From contig JAIQFH010000007.1 of NCBI GenBank assembly GCA_020073385.1, forward strand, positions 62,001-126,000: DNA of 64,000 bases, given 5' to 3'. The DNA comes from Terriglobia bacterium (lineage in GTDB: Bacteria; Acidobacteriota; Terriglobia; Terriglobales; Acidobacteriaceae). The notes beneath the pieces were generated by a model. It was not told the DNA's origin. It searched no databases and saw only the letters and a program-made list of their open reading frames with translations. A program made the position numbers and the translations under genes. The first letter of the stretch is position 1, and each line of letters starts with the position of its first letter. This document shows, piece by piece, positions 1 through 39,863 of this stretch.

Positions 1-948
1 GAACTCGAGCGTACCCTCGAGACCCGTAAGATTGCCGGATTGTTTCTCGGCGGCCAGATCAACGGCACGTCCGGCTACGAGGAAGCGGCATGCCAGGGGT
101 TGATGGCCGGAATCAATGCGGCGCTACAGGTCAAGCAGCAACCACCACTGATTCTCGACCGCACCGAGGCCTACACGGCGATCCTGATCGACGACCTGAT
201 CTCGAAGGGCACCAACGAGCCCTATCGCATGTTCACCTCGCGCGCCGAGTTTCGCCTGCACCTGCGCATCGACAACGCCGATCGCCGCCTAACGCCACAC
301 GGCCGCCGCGTAGGATTGATTTCCGACGAGGCCTGGGCTGACTTCCAAGCCAAGCAGGAACGACTAGCCCAGATGAAAAAAATGCTGGAGGGAACGCGCC
401 TAACTCCTGAAGTGCTGGAATCGATAGAAAAGCAGAAGGTAGGCAACACTCATGTGGGGACAGCCGCCCCCGACTGTCCGGCCGAGCAAAGCTCGGCAGG
501 CTTTTCTTCTGCCATAGGCCAAACGCTGGCACAACTCTTGAAGCGTCCCGAAGTCACAGTTGAGCAGTTGGTTCCGATTCTGAGCGTGTTGGCTGGGGAC
601 TTCTTCGCCCGAAGTTTCTCCGTGACCCCTGTGGTGAAGCTTTCTTCCGAAGTCCGCAACGAACTGAAGTCGGTCGAAACCGAGATCAAGTACGAGGGCT
701 ACCTGCTGCAGCAGCAACGAGCCATGGAGCGCCTGAAGAAGTCCGAGCAACACTCGATCCCCGAATGGTTCGACTATCGCTCTGTCAGCGGCTTATCGCG
801 CGAGATGCAGGAGAAGCTGACAAAGGTCCGTCCCCGTACCATCGGCCAGGCGTCGCGCATTCCAGGCGTGACCCCGGCCGCCGTCTCGCTGGTGAATGTC
901 TACATCGAAATCCAGGCTCGGCGCCGGGAACAAGCCGCCGCGCTTTAG
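1..948 (+). CDS. mnmG: MnmG (GidA), tRNA uridine-5-carboxymethylaminomethyl modification enzyme, C-terminal part
   Basis: The reading frame is open from base 1, so the 5' part of the gene lies outside the window. The first residues contain the MnmG block [18 protein letters not shown], followed by [21 protein letters not shown] and [10 protein letters not shown], all typical of the region after the FAD domain. The C-terminal helical domain that contacts MnmE and tRNA ends at the TAG at 946-948. MnmG works with MnmE to modify U34 of certain tRNAs; mnmE itself lies at 5801-7231. About 20 residues around codon 150 of this fragment ([15 protein letters not shown] and following) do not look like MnmG and coincide with a family A palindromic repeat. 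The gene overlaps the convergent TPR gene by 4 bases. Confidence 0.95.
452..513 (+). repeat. Family A palindromic repeat, inside mnmG in frame
   Basis: Two successive stem-loops are visible: GACAGCCGCC against a GACTGTC-type arm, then GCCGAGC-AAA-GCTCGGC. The start ATGTGGGGAC matches the starts of the copies at 7006 and 60750. The element adds about 20 codons to mnmG without a stop or frame change. Confidence 0.8.
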
Positions 949-1994
949 TTCTTAGCGTGGCTCTGCAACTGCTCCGCCAGCTGAAGTTCGCTCTCGGCGT
1001 CTTCTTTTCTTCCCATATCGCGGTAAGCCTGCCCTAGCAGATGATGCGTCGTCGGATTATTCGGGTCCATCGATGCGGCCCGTTGCAATGCTCGAATGGC
1101 TAGCTCGAACTCGCCTTTCTTCTCGAGCACTTTGCCCATAAGGATGTAGGGCCCGGTGGTTGTGGCATCGAGCCAGATCGAGCGTTGTAAGAGCCGCTCC
1201 GCCTCGTCGTATTTCTGCACCCGCGAATATGCGTCGGCCAGCTTGTAGTAGGTGGCTGCATTAGCAGGACTAATGGCAAGTTCTTTCTGAAGTTCCGCGA
1301 TCGCCTCAGGAATTCTGGACTTATAGATGTAAAGTTCACCGAGAAGAAAATGAACCAGCGGCAGCTTTGGATCCAGCTCCGCAGCCTTTTTCGCATACTC
1401 TTCGGCGATGGGGTCGTACTCCTGCCGAAACAGCATTCTGGCGGTGAAAAGGTACGCTGCCGCAGAATCGCCAGGGACGTCGAACATCTTGCCGAAAGAC
1501 TTGCGCGCCTGATCGTAATTTTTCAGCCGGATATAACAGACGCCCAGAATGTAGGCCGCGTCCACATTCGCGCGCGAATACCATCCCTGCACTTGCTCCA
1601 GTAGCGGAATCGCCTCTGCAGGATGTCCGCTGAGGTAATACGAAAGGCCCAATAGCTGCGTCGCTTCCTCATTGGTGGGGTCAGTCGAGATTGATTTCTT
1701 GTAGTAATCGACGGCTTTTGAATAGTCACTCTTCTTGTAGTATGCAGTACCCATCTCGAATGCCAGGCCCTTGGCATTCGGATCGCGCCCCTCTATGCCT
1801 TGGAGCTCTGCAATAGCCTCATCGACCTTGCCCTGCTGCATCAGCTTCCGGGCATTTGAGAAATCAGGTGCGCTGGTTGTCGAAGCCTTCGGCCCTTCGG
1901 GCGGAGACGATTGTTGTCCAAAAGCAGTGGCCAGGAACGTCAGCAACAGTCCGGCACAACACGCGAAACGCGGTATCACAGATCGCGCTTTCAT
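945..1994 (-). CDS. Secreted tetratricopeptide repeat protein
   Basis: The 349-residue product begins with a signal peptide ([10 protein letters not shown], then a hydrophobic stretch ending TAFGQQ). The rest is TPR repeats: blocks such as [61 protein letters not shown] and [21 protein letters not shown] recur about every 34 residues. TPRs are protein-binding scaffolds, so no enzymatic role is claimed. It is probably periplasmic. It converges on mnmG, the stops overlapping by 4 bases, and lies downstream of the copper monooxygenase/TPR gene in the same direction with a gap of about 90 bases, so the two may be co-transcribed. Confidence 0.85.
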
Positions 1995-2086
1995 ACTGAG
2001 AATTAGAGCACAAAAGGCAGGCAGGTTGCGGATCCGGGAGCCGGTTCTGATTTCTTGCTTCAGACGGACTTGGCGAGATTCAACTT

Positions 2087-3925
2087 CTAGTGCTCAGCCG
2101 TTTCCCTTTTCAGCGCTTCCAGATTCTCCTTGGCAACCGGCTGTTCCGGATCAATTTCCAAAGCCCGTTGCAGGTGCGCCTTAGCCTCCTTAAAGCGCCC
2201 CAATTGCGCCAGCGCCACTCCGAGATTGGCCTCGGCCCCGGCGTCATCCGGCCGTATACCCAACGCGAGTTGAAACTCTTTCGCGGCCCCGGCGAAATCA
2301 TCCTGCCCGGCAAGCGCGAATGCCAGGTTGTAATGCGCATCGAAATAATCGTTGCGCAGTTGAATCGCCTTCCGCAGGAATTCCGTAGCTCGTGCCGCAT
2401 TTCCGCGCGCCACCAACGCCGCTCCCAGCGCGTTGTTTGCTGTGGCATCCTCAGGACGCAGACTCATCGCCTCCTGGTACTCGCGAATCGCCCCGTCCAG
2501 ATCATCCCTGGTCTGCAGCATCGAACCAAGGTTGTAATGAGCCTCGAAATCGCCCTGGTTCTTTTCGACGTTATGGCGCGCCAACGCTTCCTGCAGGGCC
2601 ATACGAGGATCCCCCTTTGCCACATCGAAATTCACCGGCAACATCTGCAGCCAGAGGTGGCACATTTCATCACTTGAACGGTTTCCGCCACGCACGCGCA
2701 CCGGTGGACGATTCGGATTTAGCGGATTTTGGTCCGAGTTGTCATATGTATAGCGGAAGCTCACGGTTGTCCCTTTCGGAAGCCGCACCGGCTCAGCGTA
2801 GCGATACACAGCCTGCCAATTCAGATTCCATTGCGGAATGTGGATGAGCGTCTCTTTCTTTCCGCCGGTAAGAGTAGCGAATGCCTGAATGTCCTTTCCT
2901 AGATAATGTGCGTGCGGATAAATCGCCATCAAGTCCACATCAACCGGAAGAACAAAGTCGTCAGTGACCAGAAAATTTTTTTCGCCCGCTGGAATATCCA
3001 GCTTCACATCGTTTTCGAGCTGCAGAAGCATCGGCAGCTTCGTTGCCGGATGCGAGCTGAAGTAAAGTCCAATGCTCGGCTGGATCACTTCGGGCTTCCC
3101 GGAAGGCTGCAAGTGCGTATTGAGGACAAGGTCGGTGCCTTTATCCAGTCGAAGCTCCATTCCCTCAGGCTCAACGTACGGAACCGTCCCGGGCTTCCAA
3201 AACAAAAGGTGGCTGTCCGGATCGAACACCTGCGACTCGATCCGAATTTCCATTCCCCCAAACCCCGCGCCAGGTTCCTTTTCCTGCCTGCGAGAGGCCT
3301 CTTCCCGATCCACAAGAATGTTGGCGTGATGTACGTATCGCTTGTCGCCAGGCCGAATTTCGACAGCCTTGACCCACTTCGTCTCTTGAATCGGGACGGG
3401 AAAGATGAAGTTCCAGTATGAGTCCGTGCCTTGCGGCGGCAGGGTGAACGGTTTCGTTGCCGTGAGAATCAGATCAGGCTTTCCTAGACGCCAGCCCTCG
3501 ACAAACTTCGGCTGGGGAGGAAGGTCCTGCGGATTCCCTTCTACTGCGCCCTGCTCAACCCAGCGAGCTATGAGATCTATTTCCGCATCGCGCAGCCGCA
3601 ACTCGTCTGCAAACTTGAGCTCTTGCGGCTCCGGCAACCAAGGGGGCATCGCTCGTGATCGCGTGACATCGGCGATCTGGCGCGCGTGTTGCTTGACGTC
3701 TGTATAGGTCAACAGGGAAAACGGCGCCGCCTCGCCCGGCCGGTGGCACGTCGAGCAGGAATGAAAAATGATGGGAGCGATATCGCGGTTGAAAGTAACG
3801 GATTCGCCGGGTTTCGAATCATGAAGCACACGCAACGAAGCAGGCTCGGCCACCAGCACGCCGATCACGCAAGCCGCTGCCACGATCAAGAGCGGCTGCG
3901 TCCCACTGCGCTTAACGAACGTCAT
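2087..3925 (-). CDS. Cytochrome c / copper type II monooxygenase-like protein with TPR tail
   Basis: An N-terminal membrane or signal segment (about residues 10-28) is followed by one haem-binding motif, CSTCH (57-61). The middle carries histidine motifs typical of copper type II ascorbate-dependent monooxygenase-like proteins: HHANI, LNTHLQPSGKP, YPHAHYLGKD and DEMCHLW. The C-terminal 150 residues are TPR repeats (AHYNLGSMLQ, ANNALGAALVARG, AHYNLAFALAGQD). This order is known from large secreted proteins of Acidobacteriota and Planctomycetota, whose substrates are mostly unknown. I chose ATG 3925 because it overlaps the stop of the upstream thioredoxin-like gene as ATGA, indicating translational coupling; an in-frame start at 3946 would add seven residues. 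Confidence 0.8.
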   Translation of the reverse strand: MTFVKRSGTQPLLIVAAACVIGVLVAEPASLRVLHDSKPGESVTFNRDIAPIIFHSCSTCHRPGEAAPFSLLTYTDVKQHARQIADVTRSRAMPPWLPEPQELKFADELRLRDAEIDLIARWVEQGAVEGNPQDLPPQPKFVEGWRLGKPDLILTATKPFTLPPQGTDSYWNFIFPVPIQETKWVKAVEIRPGDKRYVHHANILVDREEASRRQEKEPGAGFGGMEIRIESQVFDPDSHLLFWKPGTVPYVEPEGMELRLDKGTDLVLNTHLQPSGKPEVIQPSIGLYFSSHPATKLPMLLQLENDVKLDIPAGEKNFLVTDDFVLPVDVDLMAIYPHAHYLGKDIQAFATLTGGKKETLIHIPQWNLNWQAVYRYAEPVRLPKGTTVSFRYTYDNSDQNPLNPNRPPVRVRGGNRSSDEMCHLWLQMLPVNFDVAKGDPRMALQEALARHNVEKNQGDFEAHYNLGSMLQTRDDLDGAIREYQEAMSLRPEDATANNALGAALVARGNAARATEFLRKAIQLRNDYFDAHYNLAFALAGQDDFAGAAKEFQLALGIRPDDAGAEANLGVALAQLGRFKEAKAHLQRALEIDPEQPVAKENLEALKRETAEH

Positions 3926-4512
3926 TCCAGATCCGAAATGTAGCAACCCACGCCCCGCACTTCGTTGCGTGCCATCGACTCTCCCGCCGATGCCGCTCGA
4001 ATTGCATCCTCCAATTCATGCGTCGTCGGCGCTGAACGTGCCCACCCCGAGTCGATGTACCAGTCGTCAATGCGGCCGTCATAAACGAGATGGCGGTCGC
4101 GGTTGAACACCGCGACCTCGGGAGTGATTTGCACGTGGCTCAGCTTGACCAGCGCATGTTGCGGATCGCGCAGCACCGGCAGGTGATATCTATATTCTTC
4201 CACGGATTTGCGAATGTCTTGCGCGGTATCGCTCTTGTCCGGATAAATCAGCCAGAAATTCGCCCTGTCGGCGAAGCGCTTGCTGATCTGCTGAACGGCA
4301 GGCGCATAGCGGCCCGAAACCGGGCAGTCCCTTCGGAGAAACACGAGCACCACAACTTTTCCGGAGCCCGTGGCGAGCGGATCTAGCGCGTGCCCGTCGA
4401 GGTCCATCGCAGATTGCTGTCCCCGCGCGCAGGGTAAACAGACCGCGAGTAGGATCAGAACAAAGATCGCTCGAAACCGGAATTCCCACCGCATAGAATC
4501 TTTCGCGTCCAT
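3922..4512 (-). CDS. Secreted thioredoxin-fold (redoxin) protein with CPVS motif
   Basis: The 196-residue product has an N-terminal hydrophobic segment (residues 14-30, FRAIFVLILLAVCLPCARG) and then a thioredoxin-like fold: VVVLVFLRRDCPVSGRYAP, LPVLRDPQHALVK and ITPEVAVFNRDRHLVYDG. The active site reads C63-P-V-S66, so the second cysteine of a classical CXXC is absent; such proteins cannot form the usual intramolecular disulfide. It is coupled by an ATGA overlap to the monooxygenase/cytochrome gene downstream, so a role in that protein's maturation, for example copper or haem delivery, is plausible but only inferred. It is divergent from ruvA. Confidence 0.8.
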   Translation of the reverse strand: MDAKDSMRWEFRFRAIFVLILLAVCLPCARGQQSAMDLDGHALDPLATGSGKVVVLVFLRRDCPVSGRYAPAVQQISKRFADRANFWLIYPDKSDTAQDIRKSVEEYRYHLPVLRDPQHALVKLSHVQITPEVAVFNRDRHLVYDGRIDDWYIDSGWARSAPTTHELEDAIRAASAGESMARNEVRGVGCYISDLE

Positions 4513-4574
4513 GATTCTAAGAGCTCACGTCTGGAGTGTCTACGCCCGATCACGAATTCGCGTGAACCCCAAGA

Positions 4575-4612
4575 CGTAACACCCAAGACCCAACACCCGC
4601 CCTCACCCACTA
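4575..4612. repeat. Low-complexity family E repeat arm
   Basis: The run of CAAGACCCAACACCC-type units upstream of ruvA resembles the short CTTAGG/CTCAGG-type arms at 32252-32287, 33717-33753 and 34243-34318. Only one arm is present, so the assignment is tentative. Confidence 0.35.
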
Positions 4613-4626
4613 CAATGGGCGTGCCT

Positions 4627-5217: not shown

Positions 5218-5228
5218 GAACAGGAAAT

Positions 5229-5783: not shown

Positions 5784-5800
5784 ATGGAGAAAGACTACTC

Positions 5801-7231
5801 CTACTTGCCAATACAGAATGTGCTGAAGATCAAGTTCAGAATATCATCGGTCGTTGTCGCCCCAGTGATCGCATCCAGAGGCCGCAGGGCATTGTAAAGA
5901 TCCAGCAGAAGCATCTCGTGCGGGACCTTGTTCGAAACCGCCGTTTGCGCCGCTCCCAACGCCGCTAGAGAATCCTTGATCAACCCGGAATGCCGGACGT
6001 TCGTGAGAAATCCCGTCTCCTGCATGCCAGTGTCGCCGCCCACGTGGTTCAGAATCTCCGCCCGCAGTTCTGGTATTCCTTCACCCGTTACCGCCGAAGT
6101 GAGAACGGTTTGGGTGCCCCACTTCTCCCTGCCTTTGGGAGCAGTGGGGATTTTCGAACGTTGCCTGTTTAGATCACACTTGTTCTCCACCACGATCACA
6201 GACCGACGTTGCGCCTGACCCAGCAGCTCTTCATCCTCCTTGCTCGGCCCCTCCGAAGCGTCGAAGACCACCAGCACCAGGTCCGCATCGGCCAGCGCCT
6301 CCATCGACTTGCGGATACCAATCGACTCCGCCTCATCGAGCGCATGGCGAATGCCGGCCGTGTCTACAAGCCGGACCGGAATGCCACCGATCGCAACCGT
6401 CTCAGTGACCAGATCCCGCGTGGTCCCCGGAGTCGCCGTCACAATGGCCCGTTCGCGCTCGACCAGCCGGTTGAACAAAGAAGACTTCCCCACATTCGGC
6501 CTGCCAACAATGGCCAGTGTCAATCCTTCATGGACAATTTTTCCATAGGCAAAGCTGGCGCTGAGCTCTTCCAGCGGCTGAAGTACGGCAGCGATGTGCT
6601 CGAGAATCTTCTGGTCCGGCATCACGGAAACATCGTCTTCGGCGAAATCGATGCCTGCTTCGAGCACCGCAATCAACTCAACGAGTCTCTGCTTGATCGG
6701 CAGCAAGCGTCGCGACAGGGATCCATCCAATTGCTGCGCCGCAACCTTCGCTTGATAAAGCGTCTGCGATTCGATCAGATCCCGCACCGCCTCAGCCTGA
6801 GTCAGATCGATGCGCCCGTTGAGAAAGGCCCGCATCGTAAACTCCCCCGGCTCGGCCAGCCGCGCACCGGCAGCCACGCAAATCTCCACAATGTGGCGCA
6901 ACACAACGGGCGACCCATGCGCCGAAATCTCGATGACATCGTCGGTAGTGTAGGAATGCGGTTTGCCGAAGTAGGTAACGACGACCTCATCGATCCGCCC
7001 AGATTGTGTAGGGACGGACGCCTCGTCCGTCCCAGCCGAGCCAAGCTCGGCTGCCTCACTACACGGCTCGATCAGCTCTCCGAAGACGGCCCGACCCGGC
7101 TCCAGTTCGTGATTCAGCCTCAGCATTGGGCCGGCAATCCTCCGCGCCTCAGGCCCGGCAATCCGCACTACGCCAATCCCTCCGCGCCCTGAGGGTGTCG
7201 CGATGGCGACAATCGTGTCATCCAGGTTCAC
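5801..7231 (-). CDS. mnmE: MnmE (TrmE), tRNA modification GTPase
   Basis: MnmE with MnmG installs the 5-carboxymethylaminomethyl group at U34. The N-terminal tetrahydrofolate-binding domain starts DTIVAIATPSGRGGIGVVRI and has the RPGEF-like block AEPGEFTMRAFLNGRIDL. The G domain shows G1 GRPNVGKS (243-250), G2 TTRD, G3 DTAG and G4 NKCD (350-353). The protein ends with the diagnostic CIGK, whose cysteine is conserved. At 476 residues it is longer than the usual 450-460: residues about 57-77 coincide with a family A repeat and about 359-375 with a family D repeat. Both lie in loops, between beta strands of the N-domain and between G4 and the G5 region (LTSAVTGEG). Confidence 0.96.
   Translation of the reverse strand: MNLDDTIVAIATPSGRGGIGVVRIAGPEARRIAGPMLRLNHELEPGRAVFGELIEPCSEAAELGSAGTDEASVPTQSGRIDEVVVTYFGKPHSYTTDDVIEISAHGSPVVLRHIVEICVAAGARLAEPGEFTMRAFLNGRIDLTQAEAVRDLIESQTLYQAKVAAQQLDGSLSRRLLPIKQRLVELIAVLEAGIDFAEDDVSVMPDQKILEHIAAVLQPLEELSASFAYGKIVHEGLTLAIVGRPNVGKSSLFNRLVERERAIVTATPGTTRDLVTETVAIGGIPVRLVDTAGIRHALDEAESIGIRKSMEALADADLVLVVFDASEGPSKEDEELLGQAQRRSVIVVENKCDLNRQRSKIPTAPKGREKWGTQTVLTSAVTGEGIPELRAEILNHVGGDTGMQETGFLTNVRHSGLIKDSLAALGAAQTAVSNKVPHEMLLLDLYNALRPLDAITGATTTDDILNLIFSTFCIGK
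6110..6155 (-). repeat. Family D hairpin repeat, inside mnmE in frame
   Basis: On the + strand GGTGCCCCACTTCTCCC is followed, after a short loop, by GGGAGCAGTGGGGATT, forming a strong stem-loop. Near-identical copies lie at 7291-7331 and, inverted or degenerate, at 27600-27645 and 38027-38073. In mnmE it encodes KIPTAPKGREKWGTQT, between the NKCD motif and the G5 region. Confidence 0.8.
7006..7064 (-). repeat. Family A palindromic repeat, inside mnmE in frame (antisense)
   Basis: The element is bounded by perfect 6-base inverted ends GTGTAG (7006-7011) and CTACAC (7059-7064). Between them are GGGACGGACG-CCT-CGTCCGTCCC and GCCGAGC-CA-AGCTCGGC stem-loops. Read in the mnmE direction it encodes CSEAAELGSAGTDEASVPTQ. 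Confidence 0.85.
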
Positions 7232-7290
7232 GCGCCGATTGTAACGGGTAAACTATGACGGCAACCAAAAGGCTGGGCACCAACATTTCG

Positions 7291-7331
7291 GGGTGCCCCA
7301 CTTCTCCCTGGGTTTGGGAGAAGTGGGGATT
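7291..7331 (+). repeat. Family D hairpin repeat, intergenic
   Basis: GGGTGCCCCACTTCTCCC and GGGAGAAGTGGGGATT form a long stem with a GGTTT-like loop, between divergent mnmE and the carbonic anhydrase gene. It nearly matches the copy inside mnmE 1.1 kb away. It leaves about 20 bases before the anhydrase start and may contribute to that leader. Confidence 0.8.
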
Positions 7332-7354
7332 CTGACTTCGCCAGGAGCAAGCAC

Positions 7355-27683: not shown

Positions 27684-29576
27684 TCAGAGGATCTGGCGCG
27701 AGTCGCCGACGCGCCGGGTCACTCGCTCGCGGTCGAGGTATTCGAGCAGTGGGATAGCATACTTCCGGCTTACACCCGTCATGTCTTTGAAAGCGGCGAC
27801 GTCGATAGTAGGAGACTTCGCTTTGTGGGCGGCGATCTGGCGGCGGAGTTGGTCGAGGGCGGTGCGGTGAAAGACGAGATCGTCGGAGATTTTGATCAGT
27901 GATTTTTCCCGCAGAAGAAGTGTGACGATCTTTTGGGCGCGGGCTTTGTCGATCTTGAGACCGCCGAGGACTTCGTGGAGAGCGGGGACTTTCAGTCCTG
28001 CGGTGGCGAAGGCATCTTCGATTTTCTTCTTCGATTGCGCTTCCTCGTCTTTCATCATGACACCGTGACCGGGGAGACGGACGATGTCTCCTGCGATCTC
28101 AAGTTTTTGCTCGCGTGCGAGTTGGTCGAGCGCCACGGCGAATACTTCCGGCGAAGCTTTTCCCTGTTCGCGCAATTCTTCTTTCGCCATACCGGGTGAC
28201 AGCGAGTTCTTTTTGTGGAACGCCGCGACAGCCGCCAGTATGAGCGCCTGCAGCGCAGCGAGAGAAACACCGTCGATCAGGGTCTCGCCAACACGATGAA
28301 CCTGCCCTTTGTTGAAGGCTGAAGACAGCGCGGTTTGAATCGAATCACGGCGCCATCCTGTTTCCGCGACCAGTTGAGCGAGAGAGATTCCTGCACGAAC
28401 ACGGCGTTGAATACGGCGTTCCAGAATTGGCGCACGGTTTCCATCTGAGAGTACTTGAAGGAAATCAGCGAGGTCCGGCTGGCGTGGAATAGGAACGGCA
28501 TCGAGGACCGTGCCTCCGCCGATGGTGATGACGGGCGAGAACTGGCGGATGATGAACCGGTCGCCGGGCAGAAGGAGCGCAGCGGCAGGAAGCTTAAGGC
28601 GGGCAAATGCTTCGGTAGCGGGTGCGAGCTCTTTTGTATTGTGCAGGGCGATTTCGGCCACAGTCTCCATGGTGTTGGAGTGGAAGTGGACGCGGCTTCG
28701 GTTCCGCAAGGCCCGCGGCGCTGATTTGAGGAGAGTGAGGCGGACGTCGGCACGGCGCGTGGCAGTGAAGGTGTCGGGCGGAGCCAGCATCATCCCGCGC
28801 GCAAGATCTTCGGTGCTCGCACCGGCCAGGTTCAGCGCGGTGCGCTGGCCGGCGATAGCGCCGTCTGCCGGCTTTCCATGGACCTGCACGCCTCGGACGC
28901 GGACTTTGCGGCCTGAGGGAAAGACCTCCAATTCGTCTTCGTGGTGGATGGTGCCGGAGATGAGGGTTCCCGTGACCACCGTGCCGAATCCTTTCATCGT
29001 GAATACACGGTCGATGGGCAAACGCGGCAGGGCGCGTGAATCGCGCGGTTCGACTTGGGCTGCCGCGGCGGCGATGGCACGCTTCAGATCGTCGAGGCCC
29101 GCGCCGGTAAGTGAACTCACGGGGACGATGGGGCTGTGCTCCAGAAAAGTCCCGAGCAGAAAATCTTCGACTTCGAGGCGGACCACCTCCAGCGTTTCGC
29201 CATCGACGGTGTCGGACTTAGTCAGGACTGTGATGCCGCGCTGGACGCCGAGTAGTCGGAGGATGTCGAAGTGCTCGCGGGTTTGAGGCTTGATGGATTC
29301 GTCGGCGGCGATGACCAGCAGCACCAGATCGATGCCGCCGACTCCGGCGAGCATGTTGCGCACGAAACGCTCGTGGCCGGGGACATCGACGAAACCGATT
29401 TGCAGAGTTCCGCCATCGGGCGTAGGCAACGCCATGTGGGCAAAGCCGAGATCGATGGTGATGCCGCGGCGTTTTTCTTCGGCGAGACGATCGGCGTCGA
29501 TGCCAGTGAGGGCCTTGACCAGCGCGGTTTTACCGTGGTCGATGTGGCCGGCGGTGCCGATGATGATCGATTTCAT
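27684..29576 (-). CDS. selB: SelB, selenocysteine-specific elongation factor
   Basis: SelB delivers Sec-tRNA to UGA codons that carry a SECIS hairpin. The G domain has [34 protein letters not shown] and LTKSDTVDG. Domains II and III follow ([34 protein letters not shown]), and the C-terminal winged-helix region (residues about 380-630) that reads SECIS RNA is full length. The length, 630 residues, is close to the E. coli protein. This implies the organism makes selenoproteins, but no tRNA-Sec or selA is in the window and I did not recognise an in-frame UGA gene. A family B repeat lies just upstream of the start. Confidence 0.95.
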
Positions 29577-29671: not shown

Positions 29672-29817
29672 GGAATTGGGCGGGGATGAGGATTCGAAGT
29701 CTGGGCACGACTCGCATCCTCACGCTCGCTTTGCTCGCGGGGCGGACGAAGGCACCCGCTCCTACACGGATTTATTCGCCTACAGGCGGCTCCAAATGCG
29801 ACAATAGAAGCTCTTCC

Positions 29818-32202
29818 ATGCCTACTTCTTTGACCTCTGCCTTCTCTCCGGAGACCATCCGGCAGCACGGACTCACGCCTGATGAATACGAAAAAATCAG
29901 GCAGCTTCTTGGCGGGCGCGAGCCCACGATCACCGAGCTCGGCATCTTCAGCGTGATGTGGAGCGAGCACTGCTCCTACAAGTCGTCGCGGGTGCATTTG
30001 AAGCGGCTGCCGACGCGCAGCAAGCGCGTGCTGCAGGGGCCGGGGGAGAATGCGGGGATCATTGATATTGGAGATGGCTGGGCGTGCGCCTTCAAGATCG
30101 AGTCGCATAACCATCCGTCGTTCATTGAGCCGTTTCAAGGAGCGACCACCGGTGTGGGAGGGATTTTGCGCGACATTTTTACCATGGGCGCGCGGCCCGT
30201 CGCCGTGATGGATTCATTGCGGTTCGGGCCTGTGACGCAGGCTGCCGGGCTTCGCCCTGGCAGGACAGCCGAGGCGGCTGTCGCTACGCAAGATGACATT
30301 CATCGGAATCATTCGATCATGGAAGGGGTGATCAGCGGAGTTGCGTCTTATGGGAATTGCTTTGGCGTGCCCAATCTTGGGGGTGAGACGAAGTTTGAGC
30401 GTTGCTACTCGGGCAATCCGCTGGTGAATGCGTTTGCTCTCGGACTGGTGAGGAAGAATGAAATCTTCTATGCGCGGGCGGCGGGTGAAGGGAATCCGGT
30501 GATTTACGTGGGCGCGAAGACGGGGCGCGATGGAATCCACGGCGCGACCATGGCGAGCGAGGAATTCAGCGAGGCTTCGGAGGCAAAGCGACCGAATGTG
30601 CAGGTGGGCGATCCGTTCCTGGAGAAGCTGCTGCTTGAGGCTTGTCTTGAGGCGATGCAGACGGGGGCGATTGTCGGCATTCAGGACATGGGCGCCGCAG
30701 GGTTGACGTGCTCGACGTGCGAGATGGGTGGACGCGGAGGAGTTGGTATCGACATTGAACTCGATCGCGTGCCGCAGCGCGAGACGGGCATGACTCCGTA
30801 CGAGATCATGCTGAGCGAGTCGCAGGAGCGCATGCTGCTGGTCGCGCAAAAAGGGCGTGAGGAGGAAGTGTTCCGCGTCTTTGAAAAATGGGGGCTTGAT
30901 GCTGTCGAAGTCGGGAAGGTCACGACAGACAACAAACTGCGCGTGCTGGAACACGGGAAGGTTGTGGCGGAGATTCCGAATCCGGCGCTGACCGACGAGG
31001 CGCCGCTGTACAAGCGGCCTTTGGCGCGGTGGGAGCCGCCGGTGGCGCGGGAGATGCCGGAGGAAGTGCGGCAGGGGCTGAAGCCCCTCTCTCATTCAAA
31101 CGCTAACGGCACGGCTGAAGCCGTGCCCTTCCACAATTCGCAACTGAAGCAGCTTTTGGCTTCTCCGAATATTTGCGGGAAGCGGTGGGTGTGGCAACAG
31201 TATGACCACATGGTTCAGACCAACACGGTTGAAACGCCGGGGGCGGGCGATGCGGGAGTGATTCGCATCAAGGGTACGGAGCGAGGGTTGGCGATGGCGC
31301 TCGATGGAAACGGGCGCTGGTGTTACCTGGATCCGAAGCTGGGAGCGGAGCACGCTGTCGCGGAGGCAGCGCGCAAGGTGGCCTTGTCGGGGGCAACTCC
31401 GGTGGGGGCGACGAATTGCCTGAACTTCGGCAATCCCGAGAAGCCGCACATCATGTGGCAGTTCTCGCAGACGATCGACGGCATCACCAAGGCTTGTGAA
31501 GAGTTGGAAATTCCCATCACCGGCGGCAACGTCAGCTTTTACAACGAGACGCTGGGCGAGGGGATCTATCCGACGCCAGTACTGGGCGTGGTGGGAATTC
31601 TTGAGGACGTGCACAAGACGGTGAAGATGCACTTCGCCGCACCCGGACGCACGATCGTGCTATTGCGCGGTGCCGAGCCGGGCGATATCACCGATGCGGA
31701 GACGGAGTTTGGATCTTCGGAGTACGCGAAGGTAATTCTGGGAGCGTTGTGGGGATATCCGCCGGAGCTTGATCTGGAGAAGGAAGCCGGGCTGCAACAG
31801 GCGGTAATCGAACTGGTGAAACAGGGTTTGGTGGAATCGGCGCATGACTGCTCCGATGGTGGCATCGCAGTGGCGCTGGCGGAGAAGGCGTTTCCGGCGG
31901 GAGTAGGAGCGCACGTGAATCTCAAGTCTGGCGGGTTGTTTGCCGAGTATGCGCTGTTCGGCGAGGATGCGAGCCGCGTGCTGGTGTCTTGCGACCCGGG
32001 GAGGGTGGCGCGAATCAAAGAAGTAGCGGGAAAGTACGGGATTGCGGCGGACGCGATCGGAGAAACGATCCCTGAGAAGTTGGAAATTTCATTGGATGGA
32101 AAGGCCGTGGTTGCGGCTACAGTTGCGGAGTTGAGCGGGGCTTACGAAAGTGCGCTGGAAGCGGCTTTGCGGACTGATCCGGAGTTTGTCGGGGTCGACT
32201 AG
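29818..32202 (+). CDS. purL: PurL, phosphoribosylformylglycinamidine synthase subunit II
   Basis: PurL makes FGAM from FGAR, ATP and glutamine-derived ammonia in step 4 of purine synthesis. Recognisable blocks are [37 protein letters not shown]-like [37 protein letters not shown] and [12 protein letters not shown]. The start ATG 29818 begins the conserved N-terminus; the frame is open 132 bases further upstream through repeats. Two insertions are seen: about residues 141-159 ([19 protein letters not shown], family A) and about 419-441 ([19 protein letters not shown], family B). The ATP-grasp-like core is otherwise intact. purF follows 87 bases downstream. Confidence 0.95.
30241..30290 (-). 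repeat. Family A palindromic repeat, inside purL in frame (antisense)
   Basis: Reverse-complemented, it reads GTAGCGACAGCCGCCTCGGC, CTGTCCTGCC, then AGGGCGAAGCCCGGCAG. It has the same two stem-loops as the mnmG, mnmE and 37375 copies. In purL it encodes [18 protein letters not shown]. Confidence 0.8.
31073..31135 (+). repeat. Family B two-hairpin repeat, inside purL in frame
   Basis: AGGGGCTGAAGCCCCT and GGCACGGCTGAAGCCGTGCC are two strong stem-loops joined by TCTCATTCAAACGCTAAC and ending CTTCCAC. They encode [19 protein letters not shown]. Confidence 0.85.
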
Positions 32203-32211
32203 CGTCAACAA

Positions 32212-32287
32212 ATCTCACCACAGAGGAACACAGAGGACGATCCGATTTTTTGGGCTAAGAACTAAAGGCTGAGGGCTAAGAAGGGCT
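32212..32287. repeat. Family F and family E repeat arms between purL and purF
   Basis: CTCACCACAGAGGAACACAGAGG (32215-32237) matches family F. It is followed by GGGCTAAGAACTAAAGGCTGAGGGC, a family E-type arm (32252-32287), ending directly at the purF start. Confidence 0.6.
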
Positions 32288-32289
32288 AA

Positions 32290-33717: not shown

Positions 33718-33753
33718 GTGAGGTCTCAGGTTGTGGGTCTTAGGTCTTAGGCT
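33717..33753. repeat. Family E repeat arm at the purF/prmC junction
   Basis: GGTGAGGTCTCAGGTTGTGG followed by GTCTTAGGTCTTAGG resembles the family E arms inside prmC and between purL and purF. It overlaps the last bases of prmC. Confidence 0.5.
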
Positions 33754-34633
33754 TCCGCGCCTTCACTACGCGTGGGATTGACTGCAGGTCGGGCTTAATC
33801 TGCACGTCTTGCCAGTCTTCCAATAACTTCCGGACTTCTTTCGCGATCGTTCCGCTGATTTCCATGATGAGCCATCCGCCAGGACGCAGGATTTGCCTGG
33901 CTTGCGGGATGAGGCGGGCGATCACTTCGGTTCCGGCTGGCCCTGCGAAGACCGCATTGCGTGGCTCAAACTTACGGACTTCCAACTGCACCTGATCTTC
34001 TTCTGACTCGCCAACGTAGGGCGGATTCGAGACCACAAAATCAAAATCACCCTTCAGGCCTTCGAGTAAATCGCTTTGATGAAAGTAAATCCGATGCTCA
34101 AGTTGATGGCGGGCAGCGTTGGCGCGGGCGATCTCCAGAGCGTCGGGGGAAATGTCGGTGGCGTGAATCTCTGCGTGGGCCAGTTCTTTCGCGAGTGCCA
34201 GCGCGATGCAGCCGGAGCCGGTGCCTACGTCGACGATGCGGACCTTGGACTTCGGACCTCGTACCTCAGAGTTTGTTTTGGCTGAGGTCTGAGGCCTGAC
34301 GCCTGAGGTCTGAATTTCGAGAACAGTTTCGATGACATGTTCTGTCTCCGGGCGCGGGATCAGCACGGCGGGCGTGACGATGACATCCATGCCCCAGAAT
34401 TCCTGGTGGCCCGTGATGTATTGCGCGGGGACGCCTCTTGTTCGCTCGGCAAGCGCGGATTCGTAGCGGGATTCCTCTTCCGTGGTAAGTTCGCGGTCGG
34501 GATGTGCAAACAGATAGGCACGATCGCAGTTCAGAGTGAACATCAGAAGCATCTCGGCGTTCATGCGGGGGGAGGGAACGTTCTCGGTTTTGAGGCGGCT
34601 GATGGCCGCGGAGAGGGAGTCTTTCAGATGCAC
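33740..34633 (-). CDS. prmC: PrmC (HemK), release factor glutamine methyltransferase
   Basis: PrmC methylates the glutamine of the GGQ loop of release factors. The SAM-binding motif is DVGTGSGCIALALA and the catalytic motif is NPPY in VVSNPPYVGES, the signature of N5-glutamine methyltransferases. The N-terminal helical domain has the blocks LLMFTLNCDRAYLF and GVPAQYITGHQEFW, then LIPRPETEHVIE. Residues about 108-130 (QTSGVRPQTSAKTNSEVRG and so on) do not match the family and coincide with a family E repeat, placed just before the SAM domain. It is preceded by a DinB gene and by prfA, whose product is the PrmC substrate. Confidence 0.94.
   Translation of the reverse strand: MHLKDSLSAAISRLKTENVPSPRMNAEMLLMFTLNCDRAYLFAHPDRELTTEEESRYESALAERTRGVPAQYITGHQEFWGMDVIVTPAVLIPRPETEHVIETVLEIQTSGVRPQTSAKTNSEVRGPKSKVRIVDVGTGSGCIALALAKELAHAEIHATDISPDALEIARANAARHQLEHRIYFHQSDLLEGLKGDFDFVVSNPPYVGESEEDQVQLEVRKFEPRNAVFAGPAGTEVIARLIPQARQILRPGGWLIMEISGTIAKEVRKLLEDWQDVQIKPDLQSIPRVVKARKPKT
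34243..34318 (-). repeat. Family E inverted low-complexity repeat, inside prmC in frame
   Basis: GGACCTCGTACCTCAG and CTGAGGTCTGAGGCC are near-inverse arms separated by about 15 bases, followed by another CTGAGGTCTG. The insertion adds about 23 residues rich in Ser, Thr, Lys and Arg. Confidence 0.65.
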
Positions 34634-34639
34634 AGAGAT

Positions 34640-34735
34640 ATTTCACCACAGAGGGCACTGAGGCACACAGAGGAACGACGTTATATTCGGGTTCACGACC
34701 GCAAAAGCTTAAACCGCAGAGGGCGCAGAGAAATG
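34640..34735 (+). repeat. Two family F repeat units
   Basis: TTCACCACAGAGGGCACTGAGG (34640 region) is followed by CACACAGAGG and, after 40 bases, by ACCGCAGAGGGCGCAGAG. They fill most of the gap between the DinB gene and prmC. Confidence 0.65.
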
Positions 34736-34759
34736 CGGCGATCGGACTTCGAATCGCTA

Positions 34760-35236: not shown

Positions 35237-35275
35237 TCTCTCCTGCTTCGCGGGCGCATGCGCCCACGTTATCCC

Positions 35276-36355
<1,080 letters not shown>

Positions 36356-36376
36356 GTTGTTGATTCCTGCACTCTT

Positions 36377-36480
36377 CACATCCCGGAGGGATGTCTGATG
36401 GTAGCCCGGCGTTTCAACGCCGGGTCGGCGCGCTCTCAAGCACCCGTCCCGGAGGGACGGCTGAAATGTCACATCGACCG
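36377..36480. repeat. Family C hairpins upstream of prfA
   Basis: CATCCCGGAGGGATG (36379 region), CCCGGCGTTTCAACGCCGGG and CGTCCCGGAGGGACGG are three successive perfect hairpins. The gap from 36356 to 36684 otherwise holds only degenerate repeat sequence (a further GCGGGCTACTTTCAGCAGCC-like piece) and no gene. They lie just upstream of the prfA start. Confidence 0.7.
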
Positions 36481-36684
36481 TTCAGGCGTGCCTCCAGCAC
36501 GCGATCCTCAATTATCGTCGTCACCCGACACCGAAGCGGCGGGCTACTTTCAGCAGCCCCTATCGGGACTGAACCCTTCTGCACTTCTTCGCACGAGAAC
36601 TACGCACTTGGGGGAACACTCGCAAAACGGTCGATCAATTGTAAGCTGAGAACTGATCTGTCAGAAGTATTCGCGGCGGGGCCG

Positions 36685-37782
36685 CTAGGCGATGACCAAT
36701 TCGCCGCCGCGTTCTTTTTCCAGCGACATGGCCTGATCTAACGCTGTGATTGCGCACTGGGCCTGCTCATCGGACGGAGGCTTGGTGGTAATACGCTGGA
36801 GCCAGAGGCCGGGGGCGGTCATCAGGGCGAAGAGGGATCCACGGTGCTTGGCGGCGAAGCGGATGATCTCGTAGGAGACGCCGGCGATGATCGGCAGCAG
36901 CGCGATACGCGAGGCGAAACGCGCCCAGAATGTGGTGAACGGGACCAGCATATAGAAGCCGATCGAGATCAGCATGACCGTCATGAGGAAGCTGGTGCCG
37001 CAGCGGGGATGGAATGTCGGATATTTCTGGACGGCTGTGGTGGTGAGTGGGTCTCCGTTCTCGAAGGCGAAAACTGTTTTGTGCTCGGCGCCGTGATACT
37101 CGTAGACGCGGCGGATATCTTTCCAGAGCGAGACTCCCCAGATGAATAGCAGGAACAGGCCGAGGCGGATGACGCCATCCACGAGGTTGAAGATGATGCG
37201 TCCGCCCAGGGCGGGGTCGATCTTCTTGAGCTCCGTGGCCGCCAGCAAAGGGATGTACTTGTACATGAAGATGAAGAAGGCGATGGAGATGATGACGTTG
37301 ACGGCGGCTAGCCATCCGCTGATGGCGGCGGCTTTTTCGCGGCCTTCCTTTGAAGATGCCGGCGGTTGGGACTGTTCCGCCTCGCTTCGCTTTGGCGGGA
37401 CGGGCGAGACGCCCGTCGCTACATGGTCTGTGCTCATTACATCTTCTATCGCAACGTTCGCGGAGAAGCGTAGGGCGCGGTAGCCTAGCGTCATGGCGTA
37501 GCCTAAGGTCATCACGCCGCGGACGATGGGCCAGGCCATCCATTTATGTTTTTCGGAGGGGCGCTCGAGCGGTTCGCTCAGGGTGACGACTTCACCAGAG
37601 GGCTTGCGGCAGGCGATTGCCCACGCGTGCGGAGAGCGCATCATAACGCCCTCGAGCACGGCTTGGCCGCCGACCAGGGTTTCCTCTCCGCTCTCGAGGG
37701 CGGGGAGTAGCTGGACTGCAGCCAGAAATCGCAGATAGTTCCGCAAGAAACGCACGATTATTAGATGCTCCTGAAGGGGCAC
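36685..37782 (-). CDS. DUF1385 (YqhQ-like) membrane protein
   Basis: The block GGQAVLEGVMMRSPHAWAIA (39-58) and the later YHGAEHKTVFAFENG and HPRCGTSFL identify DUF1385. Five or more membrane segments are visible (about residues 90-105, 155-175, 195-220, 265-300). Function in bacteria is not established. The gene precedes prfA, an arrangement known from other bacteria, with about 330 bases between them. Residues about 119-138 (DHVATGVSPVPPKRSEAEQS) look foreign and coincide with a family A repeat, in a loop before a membrane segment. Confidence 0.85.
   Translation of the reverse strand: MPLQEHLIIVRFLRNYLRFLAAVQLLPALESGEETLVGGQAVLEGVMMRSPHAWAIACRKPSGEVVTLSEPLERPSEKHKWMAWPIVRGVMTLGYAMTLGYRALRFSANVAIEDVMSTDHVATGVSPVPPKRSEAEQSQPPASSKEGREKAAAISGWLAAVNVIISIAFFIFMYKYIPLLAATELKKIDPALGGRIIFNLVDGVIRLGLFLLFIWGVSLWKDIRRVYEYHGAEHKTVFAFENGDPLTTTAVQKYPTFHPRCGTSFLMTVMLISIGFYMLVPFTTFWARFASRIALLPIIAGVSYEIIRFAAKHRGSLFALMTAPGLWLQRITTKPPSDEQAQCAITALDQAMSLEKERGGELVIA
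37375..37424 (-). repeat. Family A palindromic repeat, inside the DUF1385 gene in frame (sense)
   Basis: In gene direction it reads TGTAGCGACGGGCGTCTCGC, CCGTCCCGCC, then AAAGCGAAGCGAGGCGG. The mnmG copy is in the same orientation relative to its gene and in the same reading frame: VATGVSPVPPKRSEA here, [15 protein letters not shown] there. Confidence 0.85.
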
Positions 37783-37909
37783 GACGCAGCTTTTAGGTTA
37801 TCACACGGTGGGGTCATTTAGGATGGGAGCGGGAACTCGTAAGTGACCTGATTTCATGGGGGTTCTCGGCGCTCTCCGCGGGGGTTCTCGGCGACCTCAG
37901 CGTTTAGGA

Positions 37910-37965
37910 GGGGTTTTACCGCAGAGAACGCTGAGGAATTCCGCAGAGGTCGCAGAGCAGGCGGG
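37910..37965 (+). repeat. Family F-like repeat pair
   Basis: TACCGCAGAGAACGCTGAGG and CCGCAGAGGTCGCAGAGC lie in the gap from 37783 to 38099, which otherwise contains GGCGCTCTCCGCGGGGGTTC-like pieces and no gene. Confidence 0.55.
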
Positions 37966-38026
37966 ATCTGGCGGGCGCTCGTGACTCAGATCTACAGACC
38001 GCGAGTTCCACTAGGCTTAGTCCGTA

Positions 38027-38073
38027 GAATCCCCACCTCTGGCAAAATCGGCCAGAAGTGGGGCACCAATTTT
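38027..38073 (-). repeat. Family D hairpin repeat, upstream of the ligase gene
   Basis: Reversed, TTGGTGCCCCACTTCTGGCC pairs with GGCCAGAGGTGGGGATT-like sequence around an ATTTTG loop. The ligase frame is open through it, but no known ligase starts this early. Confidence 0.75.
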
Positions 38074-38099
38074 TGTCGGTCTTGGCAGATCGCAATTTC

Positions 38100-39863
38100 A
38101 TGCAAAGGTTTGCTACAACCTGCGAGGCGATCGCGGCTACCACCAAGAAGCTGCAGAAGACGGGCCTGGTCGCGGAGTATCTGCGTTCGCGGACCGCTGA
38201 CGAGGCGGCGGTGTCGGCTGTGTTTCTATCGGGGCGTCCGTTTCCGGTCTGGGAGGAGACTACGCTGCAAGTGGGCGGGCGGTCGTTGTGGGGCATGGTG
38301 GCGGAACTTGCGGATAAAGAACAGGGCGAACTTACGGCGTCCTACCGGCGGCTGGGCGATCTGGGAGCGGTCGCGGGAGATTTGCTGCCGCAGCGTTCCG
38401 GCCAGGGCTTGGGCGTACTTGAGGTCGAGGCTCTCTTTCGGCAGATCGCGGCGGCGCGGGGCGCGGCAGCGAAGACGGAGATCGTGCGCGAACTGCTTTC
38501 GCAGGCGACTCCGCTTGAGGCCAAGTACATCGTAAAGATCATGACGGGAGATCTGCGGATCGGATTGAGAGAGAGTCTCGTGGAGGAGGCGATTGCGAAG
38601 GCTTATGGAAGCACACCTGCCGAGGTGCAGCGCGCGAACATGCTGCTGGGAGATATCGGGGAGACTGTGCGCCTTGCGGCTAGGGGTCGGCTGAGTGAAG
38701 CGCGGATGCGGCTGTTTCACCCGTTGGGATTCATGCTGGCGAGTCCGGTGGAGTCGACCGAGGAGGGGCTGAGTTATTTTGCCGAGGCGGCGGTGGAGGA
38801 CAAGTACGACGGGATTCGGGCTCAGGCGCATGTTTCCGAGGGAGAGGTCAGGATTTTTTCGCGGACGCGGGATGAGATCACGGAGTCGTTTCCGGAGCTG
38901 CCGCCAGCTCTGGCGGGACTGCCGCAGGATGCGATTCTCGACGGGGAGATTGTGGCGTGGGAATATCCGGCGCGGTTGGAGGCGGCGCAGGCCGTTGTGG
39001 ATGAGCCCGCGTCCGAGGACGGCGAGGCCAACGCAGACAGTCTTGGGCGGGCGCGGCCATTCAGCGTGCTGCAGCAGCGGCTCGGGCGGAGGAAGGTTAG
39101 CGATAAGATGCTGCGGGAGAATCCGGTGGCGTATCTCGTGTTCGACGTGCTGTACGCTGACGGGGCGTTGATGATTGAGAAAACTTTGCGGGATAGGTCG
39201 ATAGTGTTGGATTCGCTGCTGGCCGCACCGCGGGATGCCACTCACCATAGAGGGCACAGAGGCGCACAGGGGAACCTTGCGTTTGAGACTGACGAGGAAG
39301 CACGGATTGACGCCGGCATCATTCGGGCGCCTGTGTTTCGCGCTACTTCGGCGGAAGAACTTGAACAGCTTTTTGTGGCGGCCCGGGCTCGCGGGAATGA
39401 AGGGCTCATGATCAAGGATCTCGAATCGGCTTATTCACCGGGGAAGCGCGGGAAGTCGTGGCTGAAAATGAAGCGCGAACTGGCCACGCTCGACGTGGTC
39501 GTAACGGCGGTCGAGTATGGACACGGGAAGCGGATTGGCGTGTTGAGCGACTACACCTTCGCCGTGTGGGATGGCGACCGGTTGGTGAATATCGGGAAGG
39601 CCTATTCTGGCCTGACCGATGCCGAGATTGCCGAGATGACGAAATGGTTTCTGGAACACACGATTGAAGATCAAGGATTCCTGCGAGTCGTCGAGCCGAA
39701 GGTAGTTTTGGAAGTGGCGTTCAATAACATGATGCGCTCTGACCGGCACGAGAGCGGGTACGCGCTACGCTTTCCGCGAATTGTGCGGCTGCGACCGGAT
39801 AAGTCAGCGGAGGACGCAGATACGATTGAAGGGGCTCGGGAGATTTACGAGCAGCAGGAGTAG
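38100..39863 (+). CDS. ATP-dependent DNA ligase
   Basis: It seals nicks using ATP. The N-terminal DNA-binding domain (residues 1-200, with TKKLQKTGLVAEYLR) precedes the nucleotidyltransferase domain: motif I EDKYDGIRA with Lys235, VFDVLYADG (motif III-IIIa region), EGLMIKDLESAYSPG (IV) and WLKMKR (V). The C-terminal OB-fold ends with ALRFPRIVRLRPDK. Bacteria usually depend on NAD-dependent LigA, so this is likely an accessory ligase. Residues about 379-398 (DATHHRGHRGAQGNLAFET) are atypical and coincide with a family F repeat. I chose ATG 38100; an earlier start would translate a family D repeat. Confidence 0.92.
   Translation: MQRFATTCEAIAATTKKLQKTGLVAEYLRSRTADEAAVSAVFLSGRPFPVWEETTLQVGGRSLWGMVAELADKEQGELTASYRRLGDLGAVAGDLLPQRSGQGLGVLEVEALFRQIAAARGAAAKTEIVRELLSQATPLEAKYIVKIMTGDLRIGLRESLVEEAIAKAYGSTPAEVQRANMLLGDIGETVRLAARGRLSEARMRLFHPLGFMLASPVESTEEGLSYFAEAAVEDKYDGIRAQAHVSEGEVRIFSRTRDEITESFPELPPALAGLPQDAILDGEIVAWEYPARLEAAQAVVDEPASEDGEANADSLGRARPFSVLQQRLGRRKVSDKMLRENPVAYLVFDVLYADGALMIEKTLRDRSIVLDSLLAAPRDATHHRGHRGAQGNLAFETDEEARIDAGIIRAPVFRATSAEELEQLFVAARARGNEGLMIKDLESAYSPGKRGKSWLKMKRELATLDVVVTAVEYGHGKRIGVLSDYTFAVWDGDRLVNIGKAYSGLTDAEIAEMTKWFLEHTIEDQGFLRVVEPKVVLEVAFNNMMRSDRHESGYALRFPRIVRLRPDKSAEDADTIEGAREIYEQQE
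39241..39275 (+). repeat. Family F repeat, inside the DNA ligase gene in frame
   Basis: CTCACCATAGAGGGCACAGAGG and CGCACAGGGGAAC match the F consensus CACCACAGAGGGCACAGAGG. The insertion encodes THHRGHRGAQGN. Confidence 0.75.

What the first reader, a model, noticed from the sequence alone, without database searches (positions are those of the whole stretch)
452..39275. Palindromic repeats inserted in frame in at least six housekeeping genes
Short hairpin repeat families that are also found between genes occur inside mnmG, mnmE (twice), purL (twice), prmC, the DUF1385 gene and the DNA ligase gene. Each adds about 12-23 codons without a stop or frame shift, at loop-like positions absent from known family members. 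It resembles Rickettsia palindromic elements, which I know only from Rickettsiales and Wolbachia; I know of no report in Acidobacteriota. The repeats seem able to spread into coding DNA and survive as peptide insertions. Direct observation: repeat sequence and ORF; inference: mobility and tolerance.
Basis: partly seen in the sequence, partly recalled or inferred. Interest (0 to 1): 0.93.

Follow-up and report, generated by a model that had tools for sequence, protein, structure and literature searches.

The report
Repeat DNA translated inside essential proteins
In a group of soil bacteria (Candidatus Sulfotelmatobacter and its kin), short repeats of a mobile type have landed again and again in the same loops of everyday enzymes, in frame, so they seem to be read as extra stretches of protein instead of breaking the gene; this was known in outline from Rickettsia and some other bacteria, and the new part is that unrelated repeats keep filling the same loops.

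Summary
The repeat-like inserts are present in mnmG, mnmE (two), purL (two), prmC, the DUF1385 gene and the DNA ligase gene. Four (mnmG, mnmE site 1, purL site 1, DUF1385) are one family, F2: a GTAG-tagged REP with 105 copies in the 8.2-Mb genome (reversed-pattern control 1), found on both sides of a REP-associated transposase (RAYT) gene. The parallel with Rickettsia palindromic elements fits the outcome, not the family: GTAG REPs inside coding regions of other bacteria were published in 2013. Some details fail: the ligase repeat is not a palindrome and adds no net codons, and the prmC copy is weakly repeated. The comparative result goes further. In relatives the same loops carry different, unrelated repeats; 119 of 287 distinct inserts match at least 3 non-orthologous places (controls 5 of 1435); 333 of 333 distinct site occurrences with both flanks found are in frame without a stop; 126 repeat-derived segments lie in the nine examined sites, 15 elsewhere in the same six genes. 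Best reading: small repeats, F2 probably moved by its RAYT, insert widely; selection removes most coding insertions and keeps in-frame ones in tolerant loops. Transposition and protein expression are inferred, not shown.

The parts
451..501 (+). F2 (GTAG/GTGG REP plus second hairpin) inserted in frame in mnmG (C-terminal part 40-948 +); reads [17 protein letters not shown]
   Evidence: 73 non-orthologous matches; the same site in same-genus genomes holds F8, F9, F7 or F2
7005..7053 (+). F2 inserted in mnmE site 1 (gene 5801-7231, strand -); read on the opposite strand as AAELGSAGTDEASVPTQ
   Evidence: (exact core at C17:69008-69032 = window 7008-7032); same-genus genomes hold F2, F1 or F7 here; falls where the aligned T. 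maritima TrmE chain 1xzp has only a few residues
6112..6152 (+). F1 hairpin repeat (GGTGCCCCACTTCTCCC...GGGAGcAGTGGGG) in mnmE site 2, soon after the NKCDL (G4) motif
   Evidence: (30 copies in genome); same-genus genomes hold F1, F12 or F10 here, or none
30241..30290 (-). F2 inserted in purL site 1 (gene 29686-32202 +); reads [17 protein letters not shown]
   Evidence: (exact core 30263-30287); empty in the purL found in the nearest tree neighbour's genome and in L057 but filled in its sister L063
31073..31132 (+). F3 double hairpin (GGGGCTGAAGCCCC...GGCACGGCTGAAGCCGTGCC) in purL site 2; reads [19 protein letters not shown]
   Evidence: only the window and L056 of 35 near rows carry it
34241..34312 (-). 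F4 (CAGACCTCAG-type, arms inverted) in prmC (33740-34633 -)
   Evidence: only 1 non-orthologous match for the window copy; predicted low-confidence loop 112-127; other species are labelled F7, F13, F14, F9 or F2 here
37377..37425 (-). F2 in the DUF1385 gene (36685-37782 -); reads HVATGVSPVPPKRSEAE
   Evidence: (exact core 37398-37422); F2 in 14 of 35 rows, the window among them, so probably inherited
39243..39274 (+). F5 (CACCACAGAGG-type, not palindromic) in the ATP-dependent DNA ligase gene (38058-39863 +); reads HHRGHRGAQGN
   Evidence: F5 in 15 of 33 near rows at this site; no clear net length gain in the window
7291..7333 (+). F1 copy outside the gene, upstream of mnmE
38026..38067 (-). 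F1 variant upstream of or at the start of the ligase ORF

Best explanation
Several families of small interspersed repeats, the largest seen here a GTAG-tagged REP (F2: CAY-GTAGSGACRGNCGNCTCGNCYGTCC plus a second hairpin), spread through Sulfotelmatobacter genomes, F2 probably moved by its REP-associated Y1 (HUH) transposase. Most copies sit outside genes. Copies that land in genes survive when they add a multiple of three bases, open no stop, and fall in a loop that tolerates a longer, flexible peptide. They are then translated as part of the protein. Because the same few loops are the tolerant ones, different repeats land there independently in different species, and inserts are gained, lost and replaced over time. 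Shown here: repeat identity, in-frame placement, unrelated families at the same sites, filled and empty sites, a RAYT gene with F2 on both sides. Inferred: transposition by that RAYT, translation, neutrality, loop position in most of the proteins.
For: Multi-copy DNA: of 287 distinct inserts of 10 aa or more (8 sites, all orthologues; lig1 left out; one duplicate dropped) 138 have at least 1 and 119 at least 3 non-orthologous matches, against 27 and 5 of 1435 same-length segments of the same genes (first version 139 and 125 of 288 vs 40 and 5 of 1440). Frame: 333 of 333 distinct site occurrences with both flank peptides found, without requiring one ORF, are in frame and stop-free; 132 of them bear a repeat label (339 of 339 with 6 duplicates). 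Recurrence: 3 family labels at mnmE1, 4 at mnmE2, 4 at mnmG, 6 at prmC over all orthologues; fewest state changes on insert-masked trees 9 (17 rows), 7 (17), 7 (16) for mnmE1, mnmE2, mnmG and 10 (23), 14 (27), 8 (35), 11 (31) for purL1, prmC, DUF1385, ligase. Hotspots: 126 segments inside sites vs 15 elsewhere, the sites being 7-13% of each gene. Filled/empty sisters: L063/L057, 90% identical DNA over four genes, differ by 51 net bases with F2 at purL1. Mobiliser: RAYT ORF L018 11134-11634 (-), NCBIfam REP_Tyr_transpos 79.4 bits (cut-off 80), with an inverted F2 pair on each side. Wider: 7 further recognisable proteins carry F2 in frame (menaquinone-type decarboxylase, NrdJ twice, ValS, Dpp5-like, SelD, cysteine-desulfurase-like, MsbA-like). 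Selection: 19 of 165 own-genome copies of the families searched are in frame in genes against 38% of 1500 random positions. Distribution: F2 pattern in 25 of 25 genomes of the genus and 0 of 16 outside it in that sample. Loop: prmC insert largely below pLDDT 50.
Against: No RNA or protein data. No transposition seen; F2 copies are mostly single (4 opposite-strand pairs within 400 bases among 94 copies, two of them at the RAYT), although dimers are called predominant in GTAG REPs (PMC3733652). PF01797 genes occur in 33 of 41 genomes searched, also outside the genus, and two genus genomes with F2 (G008 and G022, 86% and 76% complete) show none, so such a gene does not predict F2. F2-labelled inserts also occur in rows outside the genus sample (for example prmC 2 of 46 and mnmE1 1 of 12 distant rows), so one search's sharp border is that of its sample. 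Some inserts are old: DUF1385 F2 is shared by many relatives. 149 of 287 inserts have no detectable repeat match: old, or not repeats. Only 11 of 93 own F2 copies are intragenic in frame, so genes are not preferred. Parsimony counts merge unclassified with empty and may be inflated; the family library was drawn up after seeing the inserts, and labels held by one or two rows (F9, F13, F14) are weak.
Confidence: 0.82

Rival explanations
1. Ancient vertical inheritance: one insertion per site in the ancestor of the group, which then diverged or was exchanged between species by homologous recombination; current mobility is nil.
For: DUF1385 F2 in 14 of 35 rows, read in the same frame in all 16 F2-core rows; F5 in many ligases at one site; L063's purL1 insert lies in a short tract of raised divergence whose right edge resembles other species.
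Against: Unrelated families, and F2 in opposite reading orientations, at the same site; insert-free orthologues nested among filled ones.
Confidence: 0.1
2. Adaptive insertion: the hairpins or peptides are kept because they regulate translation or change the enzymes.
For: All in frame; F2 cores are read at these sites in only two of five stop-free frames (26 of 26 rows, but only six site-by-frame states), and in the genome in 9 of 11.
Against: Different families and absence at the same sites in relatives; the frames used encode small neutral residues, as expected from tolerance; overall depletion in genes.
Confidence: 0.05
3. The ribosome or an RNA process skips the hairpin, so it is not in the protein.
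For: Strong hairpins in the transcript for several inserts; no proteome available.
Against: 333 of 333 keep frame and lack stops; skipping would not need that.
Confidence: 0.02
4. Chance low-complexity loops, or assembly artefacts.
For: 149 of 287 inserts lack a repeat match.
Against: Controls 5 of 1435 against 119 of 287; independent assemblies share the sites.
Confidence: 0.01

Closest known systems
GTAG-tagged REP elements and RAYT REPtrons (PMC3733652; passages, section 15, part 1 of section 17 read)
   Same: GTAG end tag, short hairpin, tens to hundreds of copies, inverted pairs around a tyrosine transposase gene, mostly intergenic, some inside ORFs, with the same argument about flexible loops
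   Different: here mostly single units with a second hairpin; several unrelated families fill the same loops in related species (that paper notes about the same site for recB in two Xanthomonas species); host in Acidobacteriota, for which the passages I saw mention only Koribacter transposase genes flanked by other inverted repeats
Rickettsia palindromic elements (recalled, and as summarised in passages of PMC10969869; the 2002 paper was not held)
   Same: palindromic repeats in frame in unrelated genes
   Different: RPEs are given as about 150 bases and, as recalled, are confined to Rickettsiales; F2 is about 50 bases with a GTAG tag and a RAYT; RPE sequences were not compared
REP-like structures of class 3 TnpA genes in Solibacter usitatus (PMC6006769, passages read)
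   Same: Acidobacteria, about 600 copies, tied to HUH transposases
   Different: the passages I saw do not speak of coding frames; sequence not compared
Intragenic small mobile sequences of enterobacteria (PMC2759123, PMC2229807; search listings only)
   Same: small mobile repeats found in ORFs
   Different: longer (103-168 bases in the listing), other families

Membership tests
GTAG REP superfamily (F2) | GTAG tag at one end, outside the stem | tested here: met
   G 1.00, T 0.98, A 0.71 (G 0.28), G 0.99 at positions 0-3 over 94 copies; the copies were found with a pattern that begins GTAG, two mismatches allowed
GTAG REP superfamily (F2) | short palindromic stem with small loop | tested here: met
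   core GACRGNC-GNCTC-GNCYGTC in 94 copies; folds
GTAG REP superfamily (F2) | many interspersed copies, mostly intergenic | tested here: met
   105 copies; 11 of 93 intragenic in frame
GTAG REP superfamily (F2) | association with a RAYT gene | tested here: met
   L018 ORF 11134-11634 between two inverted F2 pairs; NCBIfam REP_Tyr_transpos 79.4 bits, just under its cut-off of 80; no Pfam match at 1e-8, but PF01797 over its cut-off at that place
GTAG REP superfamily (F2) | dimers predominant (Table 1 of PMC3733652) | tested here: not met
   4 opposite-strand pairs within 400 bases among 94 copies; a common, not a required feature, since the table speaks of the superfamily as a whole
Rickettsia palindromic elements | in-frame insertion in unrelated protein genes | tested here: met
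Rickettsia palindromic elements | host in Rickettsiales | tested here: not met
   nearest named records are Candidatus Sulfotelmatobacter and Acidobacteria
Rickettsia palindromic elements | sequence similarity to an RPE family | not tested
   no RPE sequences were compared
MITE with terminal inverted repeats and target duplication | target-site duplication | tested here: inconclusive
   filled/empty pairs are too diverged at the junctions to define edges

The most novel reading that the evidence does not exclude
A few protein loops act as standing landing pads: in this genus several housekeeping enzymes have one or two loops that unrelated repeat families fill, lose and refill, so that repeat turnover is a main source of new peptide sequence in core proteins, with the reading frame of each repeat filtered for harmless peptides.
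Probability: 0.35. Interest if true: 0.8.

Novelty: new variant of a known kind. Interest (0 to 1): 0.64.

Why it matters
It gives a replicated natural insertion experiment in soil bacteria with large genomes: the same enzymes, the same loops, different inserts, in dozens of genomes. That makes it possible to measure how often repeats enter genes, which loops of core enzymes tolerate new peptide, and how fast selfish DNA becomes protein. It also warns that alignments and annotation of these proteins contain repeat-derived segments.

Tried and rejected
Reading by Rickettsia-type elements alone: rejected after PMC3733652. Ligase site 1 (38970-39074): a stretch of about 25 aa that many near relatives share, with no repeat match in 18 of 18 near rows of 10 aa or more (6 of 11 distant rows do match), so left out of the finding. 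The first multi-copy test did not exclude partial orthologues and its controls were inflated; repeated with stricter exclusion and again with overlapping loci masked and duplicates dropped. PurL structure prediction failed (mean pLDDT 42) and is not used. Target-site duplications could not be defined. Two literature searches gave mostly unrelated papers. No report of in-frame repeats in Acidobacteriota was seen in the listings of the four searches aimed at that phylum or genus (13 of 13, 20 of 24, 20 of 55 and 0 of 0 papers listed) nor in four searches on intragenic palindromes (capped lists); only listings and the passages named were read, and most subscription papers are not held.
Full report
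What was claimed and what is there. The window lies in an 8.23-Mb genome (G000:C17:62001-126000) whose best-matching named records are Candidatus Sulfotelmatobacter, Acidobacteriaceae and other Acidobacteria. All eight inserts are where stated. The family names F1-F15 are my own labels.

Repeat families. F2 (mnmG, mnmE1, purL1, DUF1385) has a core with 105 copies in the genome at up to two mismatches and one match for the reversed control. Over 94 held copies the consensus is CAY-GTAGGGACAGCCGCCTCGGCTGTCC followed by a variable second hairpin; only four opposite-strand pairs lie within 400 bases, two of them at the RAYT gene. F1 (mnmE2) has 30 copies. F3 (purL2), F4 (prmC) and F5 (ligase) were counted only in held DNA, where F3 and F4 are rare and F5 has 27 own-genome copies. 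F5 is not a palindrome. Non-orthologous matches of each window insert, with overlapping loci masked: 73 mnmG, 56 mnmE1, 75 purL1, 39 DUF1385, 5 mnmE2, 7 purL2, 4 ligase, 1 prmC.

A likely mobiliser. PF01797 (Y1 transposase) matches 7 places in the genome and occurs in 33 of 41 genomes searched. One copy, L018 11134-11634 (-), 166 aa, has an inverted F2 pair on each side and scores 79.4 bits against NCBIfam REP_Tyr_transpos (cut-off 80). Another, in L036, is flanked by hairpins of the type I call F12, and F12-labelled inserts sit in mnmE site 2 of two same-genus genomes. That these transposases move the repeats is inference; two genus genomes with F2 (both incomplete) show no PF01797 match.

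Relatives fill the same loops with other repeats. Orthologues came from 80 named loci and from searches of 31 and 25 genomes with MnmE and MnmG. At the mnmG site same-genus genomes carry F8 (TGTCATTCCGAGG type), F2, F9 or F7; at mnmE1 F2, F1 or F7; at mnmE2 F1, F10, F12 or none; at prmC, over all orthologues, F4, F7, F13, F14, F9 or F2. Of 287 distinct inserts of at least 10 aa at eight sites (ligase site 1 excluded; the window's included), 138 match at least one and 119 at least three non-orthologous places; of 1435 control segments from the same genes, 27 and 5 do. In the earlier run without masking the numbers were 139 and 125 of 288 against 40 and 5 of 1440, and the five controls that matched three or more places were themselves short repeats lying in mnmG or ligase outside the sites. 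The remaining 149 inserts have no match and may be old or not repeats; at purL2, 33 of 35 near rows have none.

Sites, not genes, are hit. Repeat-derived segments (depth of at least three non-orthologous matches) fall 126 times inside the nine sites, which are 7-13% of each gene, and 15 times elsewhere in the same six genes (the window's own inserts, ligase site 1 and one genome's mnmG held twice are included in the 126). Because the sites were chosen from the window, the test is whether other genomes agree with it, and they do. Fewest state changes on trees built without the insert columns are 9 over 17 rows at mnmE1, 7 over 17 at mnmE2, 7 over 16 at mnmG, and 10 over 23, 14 over 27, 8 over 35 and 11 over 31 at purL1, prmC, DUF1385 and ligase. 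These counts merge empty with unclassified and the trees have weak forks, so they are rough; several families at one site is the firmer evidence.

Frame. Flank peptides of each site were located in the held DNA of other genomes without requiring one ORF: 333 of 333 distinct occurrences keep frame and have no stop, 132 of them with a repeat label; six duplicates were dropped, and in 24 locus-site cases only one flank was found, which could not be judged. This is strong evidence of selection for translation through the insert. F2-core inserts at the sites use only two of the five stop-free frames (26 of 26 rows, only six site-by-frame states, 16 of the rows at DUF1385); in the genome 9 of 11 do. 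The two frames encode mainly Ala, Gly, Val, Thr, Pro and Ser.

How common in genes. By a codon-usage classifier 11 of 93 own F2 copies (94 held of 105; one at an edge) lie in frame in a gene, three of them in the window; the mnmG copy is too diverged to be in that count. The other eight are in seven proteins recognised by profile, with NrdJ hit twice. For the families searched, 19 of 165 own copies are in frame, against 38% of 1500 random positions. Coding positions are thus about threefold depleted, as expected if most coding insertions are removed. The sample is centred on F2 copies and includes the window. The relatives' sample (33 of 65 in frame) is biased by how the loci were chosen and is not used.

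Change over time. L063 has F2 at purL1 with 51 net bases while its sister L057 has none; the two are 90% identical in DNA over four genes. The short tract around the insert is more diverged, so recombination is possible. The nearest row on the tree (L055, 92% protein identity) shares the DUF1385 insert with about 30 extra bases, and the purL found in its genome has an empty site 1; that purL is broken in frame and its divergence is uneven, so its binning is uncertain.

Structure. AlphaFold2 gives PrmC at mean pLDDT 82; residues 112-127, within the insert site (107-131), fall below 50, between helix 97-110 and strand 132-136. Residues 207-220 and 224-228, outside the insert, are also below 50, so low confidence is not peculiar to it. 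In MnmE the first insert falls where the aligned Thermotoga TrmE chain has only a few residues, and the second follows the NKxD motif. The PurL model failed. Loop position in the other proteins is inferred from alignment gaps.

Relation to known systems. PMC3733652 already reports GTAG and CGTC REPs inside coding regions of several bacteria and notes about the same site in recB of two Xanthomonas species. PMC10969869 (passages) summarises RPEs and calls similar events in other prokaryotes conceivable. PMC6006769 (passages) reports about 600 REP-like structures in Solibacter. In the searches made (listings) I saw no report of in-frame repeats in Acidobacteriota. F2 is filed as a GTAG REP; it works like an RPE but is not claimed to be one.

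Verdict. Real, and broader than claimed, but a variant of a known kind. The new part is recurrent, independent occupation of the same loops by unrelated repeat families in related species.

Noticed in passing
38970-39074: About 25 aa in the ligase gene that many near relatives share and that matches no repeat there; distant rows have other lengths, some with repeats (lig1).
   Followed up: partly
L032 3213-6320 (-): Class II ribonucleotide reductase gene with two in-frame F2 copies, about 1 kb from another PF01797 gene that has its own flanking repeat (CGTGGAAGAGCGGCGC type).
   Followed up: partly
L037 1803-2440: PF01797 gene flanked by long inverted repeats of 53 and 35 bases, recalling the TIR-flanked transposases described for Koribacter.
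   Followed up: no
27684-29576 (-): SelB gene in the window, and a SelD gene elsewhere in the genome carries an F2 insert (L022 1244-2326): a selenocysteine pathway is likely.
   Followed up: no
prmC of L094, L097, L098, L106, L112, L116: In these relatives the same PrmC loop holds Gln/Asp/Glu/Lys-rich tracts (such as QDQDQKQEQ) next to a REP-like insert, apparently simple-repeat growth.
   Followed up: no
G041 (L211, L213): purL of the nearest row's genome is split over frames with uneven divergence; degenerate gene, error or mis-binning.
   Followed up: partly
G001 (L121, L146): Two MnmE genes in one genome at 83% and 72% identity to the window's; both have repeat-like stretches in both loops, F2 read in opposite orientation at site 1 and different families at site 2; the bin is 9% contaminated.
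   Followed up: no
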